This document shows positions 2,816-5,143 of a DNA stretch of 10,074 bases, one piece after another. The DNA comes from an uncultured bacterium (lineage in GTDB: Bacteria > Cyanobacteriota > Vampirovibrionia > Gastranaerophilales > Gastranaerophilaceae), in the NCBI GenBank assembly GCA_948742005.1, contig CAPYQR010000017.1, positions 7,074-17,147 of the forward strand. Direction: 5' to 3'. Each line of letters starts with the position of its first letter. Position 1 is the stretch's first letter. Made by a program: the position numbers and the translations under genes. The notes beneath the pieces were generated by a model that did not search any database, was not told the DNA's origin, and was given only the letters and a program-made list of their open reading frames with translations.

Positions 2816-4861
2816 ATGGATTTTAAATCGGGAAAATGGCAAAGTGAAATTAATGTCCGCGATTTCATTCAAAAAAACTATACGCCTTATGACGGCGATT
2901 CAAGCTTTTTGGCAGGACCGACCGAAGCAACAACAAAGCTTTGGGATAGATGCTGCGAATTATTTAAAGAAGAAAGAGAAAAAGGCGGCGTTATCGATAT
3001 GGATACAAAAGTTGTATCAACAATCACATCTCATGATGCCGGATATATAATTAAAGACCTTGAAAAAATCGTCGGTTTGCAGACTGATGCTCCTCTAAAA
3101 CGTTCTATGCAGCCTTTCGGCGGAATCAGAATGGCTGAAACTTCCTGCAAATCTTATGGTTATGAAGTTGACCCTGAAGTATCCGAAATCTTTACAAAAT
3201 ACAGAAAAACACATAACCAAGGTGTTTTCGATGCTTACACTCCTGAAATGAGAAAAGCGCGCCATGCTGCTATTTTAACAGGACTTCCCGATGCTTACGG
3301 CCGCGGCCGTATTATCGGCGATTACAGAAGAATTGCATTATACGGTATTGACAGATTAATTGAAGATAAACAAGAACAACATGCTTCCCTGGATGGCGAA
3401 ATGACTCCTGATAAAATTCAATTAAAAGAAGAAATCGCAGAACAAATCAGAGCATTAGGCGAAATGAAAGAATTGGGTCAAAAATACGGCTTTGATATTT
3501 CAAAACCCGCTTCAAATGCTCGTGAAGCTGCTCAATGGCTTTATTTCGGCTATTTATCAGCTGTTAAAGAACAAAACGGCGCTGCAATGTCAATCGGCAG
3601 AACTTCAACTTTCCTTGATATTTTCATTGAAAGAGATTTGGTTAACGGCGTTATAACAGAATCTGAAGCGCAAGAAATTATTGACCATTTGATTATGAAA
3701 TTAAGATTGGTTAAATTTGCAAGAACCCCTGAATATAATTCATTATTCTCAGGCGACCCGACATGGGTAACAGAATCAATCGGCGGTGTCGGCGTTGACG
3801 GTCGTCACATGGTTACTAAAAACTCATTCAGATATTTACACACCTTAGAAAACCTTGGAACTGCACCCGAACCAAACTTAACAGTTCTCTGGTCAACAAG
3901 ATTGCCTCAAGGCTTTAAAGAATATGCTGCTCATACTTCAATTACAACTTCATCTATCCAATATGAAAATGATGATATGATGAGAGTTACACATGGCGAT
4001 GATTATGCAATCGCATGTTGTGTTTCTTCTATGGTTGTAGGTAAAGAAATGCAATTCTTCGGTGCACGTGCTAACCTTGCAAAATGCTTGTTGTATGCAA
4101 TTAATGGTGGCGTTGATGAAAGAATTAAAGAACAAATCGGTCCTAAATATCGTCCTATAACATCTGAATATCTTGACTTTGATGAAGTTATGGCAAGATA
4201 TGAAGATATGATGGAATGGCTTGCAGGATTGTATGTTAATACATTAAATGTAATTCATTACATGCATGATAAATATTGTTATGAACGTTCTCAAATGGCG
4301 CTTCATGATAGAGACGTTAAACGCTACTTTGCAACAGGAATTGCAGGTTTATCAGTAGTTGCCGATTCATTATCCGCAATTAAATATGCAAAAGTTAAAA
4401 CAATAAGAGATGAACAAGGAATCGTTGTTGATTATGAAGTAGAGGGCGAATATCCTAAATACGGCAACAATGACGATAGAGTTGACCAGTTTGCTGTTGA
4501 TATTGTTAAGAAATTTATGGGAATGATTAGAAAACACTACACATACAGAAACTCAATTCCTACAATGTCAATTTTAACAATCACATCAAACGTTGTTTAC
4601 GGAAAGAAAACAGGAAATACTCCTGATGGAAGAAAAGCAGGCGTTCCATTAGCACCCGGAGCTAACCCGATGCATGGAAGAGATACAAACGGCGCTGTAG
4701 CATCATTGGCTTCTGTTGCCAAACTTCCGTTTAATGATGCACAAGATGGTATTTCAAATACTTTCTCAATCATTCCTAATGCATTAGGAAAAGACGAAGT
4801 GTTTATGGGCGACCTTGATATAAAACTTGACTGTGGCTGCTGTGAAGGCGTTTGCAGATAG
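2816..4861 (+). CDS. pflB: Pyruvate formate-lyase (formate C-acetyltransferase), core subunit lacking the glycyl radical domain
   Basis: The enzyme converts pyruvate and CoA to acetyl-CoA and formate in anaerobic fermentation, in the cytoplasm. The 681 residues follow the E. coli enzyme (about 760 residues) throughout: PDAYGRGRIIGDYRR (~158-172), GDPTWVTE (~313-320), TAPEPNLTVLW, the catalytic pair Cys401-Cys402 in IACCVSSM (E. coli 418/419), KTGNTPDGRKAG and GANPMHGRD. The similarity stops after IPNALGKDE. Instead of continuing into the DGY...GGxHLNVNV...RVSGYAV domain, the protein ends with DLDIKLDCGCCEGVCR and a stop. That tail has cysteines at 673, 675, 676 and 680 and is not part of the usual enzyme. 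The missing domain is the next gene, 36 bases on. The reading frame is intact and a new ribosome site follows, so this is a real split rather than a sequencing break. The radical-installing activase (pflA) is not in the window. Confidence 0.95.
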   Translation: MDFKSGKWQSEINVRDFIQKNYTPYDGDSSFLAGPTEATTKLWDRCCELFKEEREKGGVIDMDTKVVSTITSHDAGYIIKDLEKIVGLQTDAPLKRSMQPFGGIRMAETSCKSYGYEVDPEVSEIFTKYRKTHNQGVFDAYTPEMRKARHAAILTGLPDAYGRGRIIGDYRRIALYGIDRLIEDKQEQHASLDGEMTPDKIQLKEEIAEQIRALGEMKELGQKYGFDISKPASNAREAAQWLYFGYLSAVKEQNGAAMSIGRTSTFLDIFIERDLVNGVITESEAQEIIDHLIMKLRLVKFARTPEYNSLFSGDPTWVTESIGGVGVDGRHMVTKNSFRYLHTLENLGTAPEPNLTVLWSTRLPQGFKEYAAHTSITTSSIQYENDDMMRVTHGDDYAIACCVSSMVVGKEMQFFGARANLAKCLLYAINGGVDERIKEQIGPKYRPITSEYLDFDEVMARYEDMMEWLAGLYVNTLNVIHYMHDKYCYERSQMALHDRDVKRYFATGIAGLSVVADSLSAIKYAKVKTIRDEQGIVVDYEVEGEYPKYGNNDDRVDQFAVDIVKKFMGMIRKHYTYRNSIPTMSILTITSNVVYGKKTGNTPDGRKAGVPLAPGANPMHGRDTNGAVASLASVAKLPFNDAQDGISNTFSIIPNALGKDEVFMGDLDIKLDCGCCEGVCR

Positions 4862-4882
4862 AATATTATAAGAAAAAAGTAA

Positions 4883-4887
4883 AAGGA
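4883..4887 (+). promoter_or_regulatory. Ribosome binding site of the glycyl radical subunit (AAGGA)
   Basis: AAGGA lies ten bases before the ATG at 4898 in the short gap after the pflB stop. An independent translation start here supports two separate proteins rather than one broken gene. Confidence 0.7.
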
Positions 4888-4897
4888 AAATAATAAT

Positions 4898-5143
4898 ATG
4901 GCAACTCAACAAGAACAAAACCTAATCGACCTTTTAGACGGATACGTTACAAAAGGCGGACATCATTTAAATGTTAATGTATTTAATAGAGACACTTTAT
5001 TAGATGCACAACAACATCCTGAAAAATATCCTCAATTAACAGTAAGAGTTTCAGGTTATGCAGTTAACTTTATCAAATTAACAAAAGAACAACAAGATGA
5101 TGTAATTTCAAGAACTTTCCATTCTCAAATCGGATGTTGTTAA
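4898..5143 (+). CDS. grcA: Stand-alone glycyl radical domain protein (GrcA-like), second half of a split pyruvate formate-lyase
   Basis: This 81-residue protein matches the C-terminal domain of pyruvate formate-lyase: LLDGYVTKGGHHLNVNV (12-28), NRDTLLDAQQHPEKYPQL (30-47), the radical motif RVSGYAV with Gly53 as the predicted radical site, then LTKEQQDDVISRTF. In E. coli these residues are the last ~80 of PflB, and a related free protein, GrcA (YfiD, 127 residues), rescues oxygen-cleaved enzyme. Here the upstream PflB lacks the domain altogether, so this small protein should be an obligatory subunit, not a spare part. It begins about where the core protein's similarity ends. The last residues, QIGCC, put two cysteines at the very C-terminus, echoing the cysteine cluster ending the core subunit. 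It is co-transcribed with pflB and followed by a terminator. The symbol grcA reflects domain similarity; function as the pair's radical subunit is inferred. Confidence 0.9.
   Translation: MATQQEQNLIDLLDGYVTKGGHHLNVNVFNRDTLLDAQQHPEKYPQLTVRVSGYAVNFIKLTKEQQDDVISRTFHSQIGCC

What the first reader, a model, noticed from the sequence alone, without database searches (positions are those of the whole stretch)
2816..5143. Pyruvate formate-lyase split into a catalytic core and a free glycyl radical subunit
The core gene holds the Cys401-Cys402 pair but ends right after NALGKDE. The glycyl radical domain with RVSGYAV is a separate 81-residue gene with its own start and ribosome site. In the classical enzyme both are one chain, and in E. 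coli the free GrcA only rescues damaged enzyme. Here the radical-bearing piece must be supplied in trans every time. Oxygen cuts the enzyme at the radical glycine, so a small replaceable subunit would let the cell repair PFL cheaply. The first part is seen; the repair advantage is inference.
Basis: partly seen in the sequence, partly recalled or inferred. Interest (0 to 1): 0.8.

Follow-up and report, generated by a model that had tools for sequence, protein, structure and literature searches.

The report
Two-piece pyruvate formate-lyase of gut bacteria
A key fermentation enzyme that is normally one protein is encoded here, and in many gut bacteria, as a core plus a small separate radical-carrying piece, and most relatives also keep a small cysteine-rich element whose job is unknown.

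Summary
In detail: a 681-aa pyruvate formate-lyase (PFL) core (C401-C402) is followed 36 nt later by an 81-aa glycyl-radical subunit (RVSGYAV). One detail is wrong: the core continues about 20 residues past NALGKDE, with a conserved Cys-rich tail.

It is not a sequencing error. The window matches Ca. Gastranaerophilales; of 117 genomes sampled from that order, 33 have a PFL: 28 split, 5 fused, none both. Split PFL is also common in four other gut-rich orders. In one genome the subunit is unlinked and must act in trans. NCBI names such subunits GrcA3, and two PDB chains (38la, 38lb) look like split cores, so the kind is recorded; nine full-text searches found no paper describing it.

New here: (1) the split probably arose once, and was undone in a Blautia/Lachnospiraceae clade; (2) 166 of 181 distinct split loci carry a Cys-pair element, on the core tail or in an unannotated ~70-aa third protein resembling the front half of the radical domain (exactly one of the two in 165). 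None of 62 single-chain PFLs has such a pair after the split point. Fifteen split loci lack it.

The repair advantage remains inference.

The parts
2816..4861 (+). pflB core of a split PFL, 681 aa, without the glycyl-radical domain
   Evidence: TIGR01255 1143.5 bits; PFL-like over residues 11-596; Gly_radical profile only to position 49 of 106
4016..4021 (+). codons of the active-site pair Cys401-Cys402
   Evidence: invariant in 40 of 40 aligned cores of A2; sequence checked
4796..4858 (+). split-type C-terminal tail, residues 661-681, EVFMGDLDIKLDCGCCEGVCR; predicted disordered
   Evidence: tail comparison; AlphaFold2 pLDDT < 50 for 661-693 of the read-through model
4832..4855 (+). Cys element in the tail (Cys673, 675, 676, 680)
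   Evidence: a Cys pair in the core tail in 37 of 37 Gastranaerophilales loci kept; in other clades the element is on a third protein instead
4862..4897 (+). 36-nt intergenic stretch with a ribosome-binding site (AGGA, 4884-4887) and a second in-frame stop (TAA 4880-4882); no terminator-like site found
4898..5143 (+). separate glycyl-radical subunit, 81 aa (GrcA3 type)
   Evidence: NF038360 159.7 bits (cut-off 158); Gly_radical profile positions 52-106
5054..5056 (+). codon of the radical glycine (Gly53 of the subunit) in RVSGYAV
   Evidence: aligned with the C-terminal domain of E. coli PFL that holds RVSGYAV
5174..5196 (+). terminator-like hairpin that ends the two-gene unit
   Evidence: 9 pairs, 5 G-C, then a T run; a consensus match only

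Best explanation
This is an obligately two-chain pyruvate formate-lyase. The core supplies the pyruvate/CoA site and the Cys401-Cys402 relay; the 81-residue subunit supplies the glycyl radical. The subunit docks in the pocket that the C-terminal domain fills in one-chain PFL, a radical-SAM activase puts the radical on Gly53, and the radical passes to the cysteine pair for catalysis. Oxygen would cleave the subunit at Gly53, and a fresh subunit could replace it. Shown: separate genes, no second PFL in the sampled relatives of the same order, an activase gene in each of 14 split-bearing relatives, a confident model of the docked domain. Inferred: activity, exchange of subunits and repair. A further inference is that the Cys-rich tail (or, in other clades, a third small protein) helps to hold, license or protect the open core; its chemistry is not known.
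For: Complementary halves of one enzyme family. Only one PFL match in each of 28 split genomes of the order. Over five order-level samples, 115 genomes had a split PFL checked on the fetched DNA, and only one of them (G011, Claveliimonas) also had a fused PFL at the thresholds used (1e-3, 1e-150, 1e-200). The subunit is unlinked in G005. One activase match in each of 14 split-bearing Gastranaerophilales genomes. AlphaFold2 of the core-to-subunit read-through: pLDDT 89.8, pTM 0.90, TM 0.94 and rmsd 1.2 to E. coli PFL. Both genes are kept in all five orders sampled, and free subunits share residues that one-chain PFLs lack: Gln at position 38 in 110 of 110 free subunits, in 1 of 61 fused domains.
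Against: No activity, EPR or binding data. The docking model was guided by 36 one-chain PFLs in its alignment, and the two chains were folded as one read-through chain, so it does not test binding. In E. coli a core cut at residue 695 binds YfiD too weakly to measure and is activated 32-fold less than the oxygen-cleaved enzyme (PMC8683613), so simple splitting is costly there; the natural split must have solved this in some way. The window's own genome is not held, so a second PFL or the activase could not be sought in it.
Confidence: 0.87

Rival explanations
1. The small gene is an E. coli-type spare part (GrcA/YfiD) that rescues a one-chain PFL encoded elsewhere, and the core is a degraded copy.
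For: The NCBI name of the subunit is 'autonomous glycyl radical cofactor GrcA3', and a database record names a Gastranaerophilales relative GrcA.
Against: No other PFL in 28 of 28 split genomes of the order. The core has an invariant active site and an open frame in each split locus listed there. The subunit falls below the GrcA cut-off (93 bits, cut-off 170) and lacks the roughly 60-residue disordered N-terminus of YfiD.
Confidence: 0.03
2. The split is a sequencing, assembly or recoding artefact: one chain is made by read-through of the stop codon.
For: The two ORFs are in the same frame in the window.
Against: There are two stops, an independent start and ribosome site. In relatives the frames differ, the genes lie up to 982 nt apart or are unlinked, and the same arrangement is annotated as pflB plus grcA3 in a closed Collinsella record.
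Confidence: 0.02
3. The Cys element has no function of its own; it is a leftover of the split that drifts.
For: It is absent in 15 of 185 split loci: 10 Erysipelotrichales loci with no tail, 4 Collinsella-type loci with a tail but no Cys, and L258. The tail is predicted disordered, and the model of core plus third protein was poor.
Against: In the third protein D, H, C, C and P are invariant in 48 of 48 aligned ORFs, and median pN/pS is 0.25 over 85 pairs. The place of the element switched between tail and separate ORF at least 8 times on the tree of 113 split cores without loss.
Confidence: 0.2

Closest known systems
One-chain pyruvate formate-lyase (E. coli PflB; TIGR01255)
   Same: Core sequence (TIGR01255 above cut-off without the radical domain), Cys pair, radical motif, predicted overall fold TM 0.94
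   Different: Radical domain is a separate gene; the core has an extra Cys-rich tail; Gln38 of the subunit and Tyr340, His393, Ser405 of the core are typical of split enzymes
GrcA/YfiD of E. coli and Y06I of phage T4 (autonomous glycyl radical cofactor)
   Same: A free glycyl-radical domain that can complete a PFL core
   Different: There it rescues an oxygen-cleaved one-chain enzyme (PMC8683613); here no one-chain enzyme is found in the related genomes sampled, and the protein lacks the long N-terminus
GrcA3 (NCBIfam NF038360, 'exception' model)
   Same: Subunit scores 159.7 against a cut-off of 158; closed Collinsella record annotates pflB plus grcA3 side by side
   Different: The name treats it as an autonomous cofactor; the data here say it is an obligate subunit of the neighbouring core
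PDB 38la and 38lb ('Formate acetyltransferase')
   Same: Chains without the radical domain: the window's subunit does not match them at E <= 1e-3. 38la matches a tailless Erysipelotrichales split core best of those tried and ends at GKED; 38lb is closest to a Coriobacteriales-type split core
   Different: No third protein matched in the PDB. What the depositors say about them was not seen. They are not among the 50 best Foldseek matches listed from a library that ends in April 2026
Glycyl radical enzymes with small extra subunits (4-hydroxyphenylacetate decarboxylase, benzylsuccinate synthase)
   Same: Small, often Cys-containing partner proteins (recalled, not tested here)
   Different: In those enzymes the radical domain stays on the large chain (recalled)

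Membership tests
Pyruvate formate-lyase | Family score above the curated cut-off | tested here: met
   TIGR01255 1143.5 bits, cut-off 994.2, by the core alone
Pyruvate formate-lyase | Adjacent catalytic cysteines and radical glycine motif | tested here: met
   C401, C402 invariant in 40 of 40 cores of A2; RVSGYAV on the subunit
Pyruvate formate-lyase | Catalytic core and radical glycine on one polypeptide | tested here: not met
   Two ORFs with two in-frame stops between them
Pyruvate formate-lyase | A PFL activase in the genome | tested here: inconclusive
   Met in 14 of 14 split-bearing relatives; the window's own genome is not held and no activase lies in the window
Pyruvate formate-lyase | Pyruvate cleavage, glycyl radical by EPR | not testable with these tools
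   needs experiment
GrcA/YfiD spare part (TIGR04365) | Family score above the curated cut-off | tested here: not met
   93 bits, cut-off 170
GrcA/YfiD spare part (TIGR04365) | A one-chain PFL to rescue in the same genome | tested here: not met
   28 of 28 split-bearing genomes of the order have no other PFL match; tested in relatives, not in the window's own genome
GrcA3 (NF038360) | Family score above the curated cut-off | tested here: met
   159.7 bits, cut-off 158, a narrow margin
Split PFL clade (as defined here) | Core groups with other split cores, apart from one-chain PFLs | tested here: met
   The window groups with split cores; the node of the tailed split cores has SH-aLRT 99 and encloses the re-fused clade
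Split PFL clade (as defined here) | Cys-pair element on tail or third protein | tested here: met
   DCGCCEGVC on the window's tail; 15 of 185 members lack it

The most novel reading that the evidence does not exclude
Split PFL has an unrecognised working part: a Cys-pair element that was built from, or takes the place of, the lost radical domain. In its separate form it is a third protein of about 70 residues whose first half resembles the front half of the radical domain and whose invariant Cys pair lies about where the radical loop would be (His to Cys-x-x-Pro median 30 residues, range 19-48; His to Gly 30 in 113 of 113 free subunits, four duplicate loci included). In its fused form it is the core's own tail. 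It could act as the counterpart of residues 696-733 of E. coli PFL, which YfiD needs for docking (PMC8683613), or as a thiol plug that sits in the empty radical pocket and guards Cys401-Cys402 until a fresh radical subunit arrives. Re-fusing the radical domain in the Blautia-type clade went along with loss of the tail; the one re-fused genome searched, G502, has no third protein either.
Probability: 0.3. Interest if true: 0.78.

Novelty: new variant of a known kind. Interest (0 to 1): 0.62.

Why it matters
PFL is a main route from pyruvate to acetyl-CoA and formate in gut anaerobes. If the radical part is a separate, exchangeable chain in abundant gut lineages, then radical damage, repair and activation can be studied in a system that nature has already taken apart, and 'GrcA3' should be read as an obligate subunit, not a spare part. 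The natural series (one-chain, tailless split, split with tail, split with third protein, re-fused) lets one ask which parts are needed to make a radical domain work in trans, a point on which engineered E. coli constructs failed (truncated core plus YfiD, PMC8683613). The unannotated third protein is a clear target for knock-out and structure work.

Tried and rejected
Frameshift or read-through: rejected, see rivals. E. coli-type spare part: rejected, see rivals. The 150-480 nt gaps of many Clostridia loci as separate promoters or terminators: terminator-like sites in 2 of 53 gaps of 150 nt or more, and no Rfam match in the gaps of ten sources searched, the window and nine loci; these gaps turned out to hold the third ORF. 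AlphaFold2 of core plus third protein (L058 read-through): pLDDT 70, third-protein helix about 65-68, Cys part mostly below 52; no conclusion on docking. Strict rule 'each split has a Cys element': it held in 113 of 113 loci of the first set but failed in 15 of 72 loci of the second set, so it was given up as a rule. Single origin of the split: 2 label changes on the FastTree tree of 247 cores (one split, one re-fusion), but only 65% support for one clade in the IQ-TREE run with the re-fused set, and the tailless clade's place is unsure there; the shared Gln and Asp of its subunits (10 of 10) speak for one origin. P0325 was wrongly counted among the re-fused chains; it ends in a split-type tail and was left out of the test. 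The AU tests (p = 0.006; p = 0.009) were made on groups named after the tree was seen.

Rows dropped before counts: duplicates L094, L098, L108, L121 and the contig-end core L075 (first set); duplicates L206, L223, L224, L254 (second set). A later check found four more pairs with identical cores (L045/L234, L047/L192, L062/L199, L087/L088); without them 181 split loci remain: tail 87, third protein 78, both 1, none 15. Two ORFs caught by length alone (L050, L071) were left out of the third-protein alignment.

Full report
WHAT IS THERE. The window encodes a 681-residue PFL core (2816-4861) and an 81-residue glycyl-radical subunit (4898-5143), both on the + strand, 36 nt apart. The core reaches 1143.5 bits against TIGR01255 (cut-off 994.2) although it lacks the radical domain; the subunit reaches 159.7 bits against NF038360, GrcA3 (cut-off 158). 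Together they cover the Gly_radical profile, 2-49 on the core and 52-106 on the subunit. The statement that the core ends after NALGKDE is wrong: a 21-residue tail, EVFMGDLDIKLDCGCCEGVCR, follows residue 660. A terminator-like hairpin follows the subunit at 5174-5196, and no such site lies between the two genes.

WHOSE IT IS. The window's own genome is not held.

IS THE SPLIT REAL AND OBLIGATE. Of the 80 loci plus the window, one (L064) is one chain, and 77 have a core without the domain plus a free subunit in the stretch. Three of the 80 have no subunit there: L001 and L075 lie at contig ends, and in L009 the subunit is elsewhere in the genome, as a stand-alone gene beside rpsO. In the order sample 33 of 117 genomes match PFL at E <= 1e-3: 28 split (open frames 685-732 aa) and 5 fused (742-771 aa), one match per genome. 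For other orders I count as split those checked on fetched DNA: Lachnospirales 17 of 95 genomes with a match, Oscillospirales 10 of 72, Coriobacteriales 28 of 36, with 3 more unfetched, Erysipelotrichales 32 of 84. The order names are inferred from the named loci behind the centre genomes. In the sample for the phylum of G011, almost all of 79 matching genomes of 249 have one-chain frames, so the split is concentrated in some lineages. Of these 115 split genomes only G011 (Claveliimonas) shows a fused PFL as well, at the thresholds used. A closed Collinsella record annotates the pair as pflB and grcA3. Each of 14 split-bearing Gastranaerophilales genomes has one activase match at E <= 1e-30, in some of them far from the pair.

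HOW IT PROBABLY WORKS. An AlphaFold2 model of the two genes read as one chain has pLDDT 89.8 and pTM 0.90, and resembles E. coli PFL with TM 0.94 and rmsd 1.2 A; the tail and intergenic linker (661-693) are not ordered. The alignment held 36 one-chain PFLs, so this shows that the pieces fit, not that they bind. In E. coli, YfiD is activated only when bound to cleaved PFL, and a core cut at 695 binds it poorly and is activated 32-fold less (PMC8683613; passages, and part 1 of the Discussion). A natural split enzyme must get round this.

HISTORY. On a FastTree tree of 175 cores (113 split, 62 fused) the label needs two changes: one origin of the split and one return to a single chain, L169 of genome G502. 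A database search with L169 listed its 120 best relatives at about 80-94% identity, among them Blautia and Lachnospiraceae proteins; 113 of the 120 carry the split-type Gln of the radical domain and 119 the HGDDY and CCVSSM motifs of split cores. Twelve chosen from them group with L169 inside the split clade (SH-aLRT 99 for that group), and a tree that holds them outside is rejected (p = 0.009; p = 0.006 for L169 alone; groups named after seeing the trees). So a re-fusion is likely. The tailless Erysipelotrichales clade (10 loci; core ends at or within a few residues of GKD or GKE, subunit starts about 3-20 nt later where its start was clear) branches first in one tree and is unplaced in another. 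Its subunits have the split-type residues (10 of 10) but the four of its cores that were checked lack most of the split-type core residues, as expected if the split came first and the core adapted later. Gastranaerophilales cores form one group among Bacillota cores, while the order's fused PFLs lie elsewhere in the tree, which suggests gain by transfer.

THE CYS ELEMENT. In many Clostridia and Erysipelotrichales loci the gap of 150 nt or more between core and subunit holds a third ORF of about 60-90 aa. In 48 aligned ORFs an Asp, a His, two Cys and a Pro are invariant. Median pN/pS is 0.25 over 85 pairs, with synonymous sites often near saturation. Its first half is related to the front half of the radical domain (best E 8e-11 in a small set; weak GrcA3 matches for 4 of 6 tested). 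No Pfam match reached a cut-off for six tested, there was no convincing PDB match, and 556 database proteins matched at E <= 0.001, of which the 120 listed carry no Pfam domain and, where named, are called hypothetical or uncharacterized. In the first set each of 113 split loci had either a Cys pair on the core tail (61, the window included) or the third ORF (52), never both. In a second set of 72 loci not used to build the model: third 29, tail 27, both 1, none 15. With identical cores removed: 165 of 181 have exactly one, 1 both, 15 none. None of 62 one-chain PFLs has a Cys pair after position 660. A search of 40 whole genomes found the third protein at full length (E <= 4e-20) in 7, exactly the 7 whose locus holds it, and in none of 16 tail-type, 16 fused and 1 re-fused genomes; 22 of those other 33 gave weak matches, which fall on the front half of the radical domain. 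A model of core plus third protein was poor, so where it binds is open.

WHAT IS KNOWN. Nine full-text searches of an open-licence library found no paper on split PFL, GrcA3 or the third protein; subscription papers and preprints are not held. But GrcA3 is a named NCBI model and PDB 38la and 38lb look like split cores, so others know of the split. I judge the split a recorded but apparently undescribed variant, and the Cys element and the re-fusion as new observations.

SCORE. The finding as given is real and biologically sound; its novelty is reduced by the existing NCBI model and PDB entries and raised by the third protein and the natural reversal.

Noticed in passing
window 5324-10072 (+), open at the window end: A surface-type protein of at least 1583 aa with a Chlamydia PMP repeat match (PF02415, 31.8 bits) directly follows the pair.
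   Followed up: partly
window 3-1883 (-): A 627-aa open frame, open at the window end, with no Pfam match at E <= 1e-3.
   Followed up: no
window 2255-2677 (-): A 140-aa EamA-like membrane protein, half the length of the usual two-repeat transporter (recalled).
   Followed up: no
window 5120-5140 and subunits of L002, L081, L082, L083, L089, L090, L096, L100: In the window and these relatives the radical subunit itself also ends in Cys-containing residues (IGCC, SCGC, NCGC and the like), beside the Cys-rich core tail; perhaps a joint metal site or disulfide.
   Followed up: no
L181 (MT838895) and L182 (MT838692): Records filed as fecal phages carry a PFL core (76% and 72% identity) followed by a radical subunit; they look like bacterial fragments.
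   Followed up: partly
L250: An Erysipelotrichales split locus in which the core tail has no VFxGD motif but a third ORF was scored; not looked at closely.
   Followed up: no
L240 (G820): The one locus with both a short Cys pair on the core tail and a third protein, a possible intermediate.
   Followed up: no
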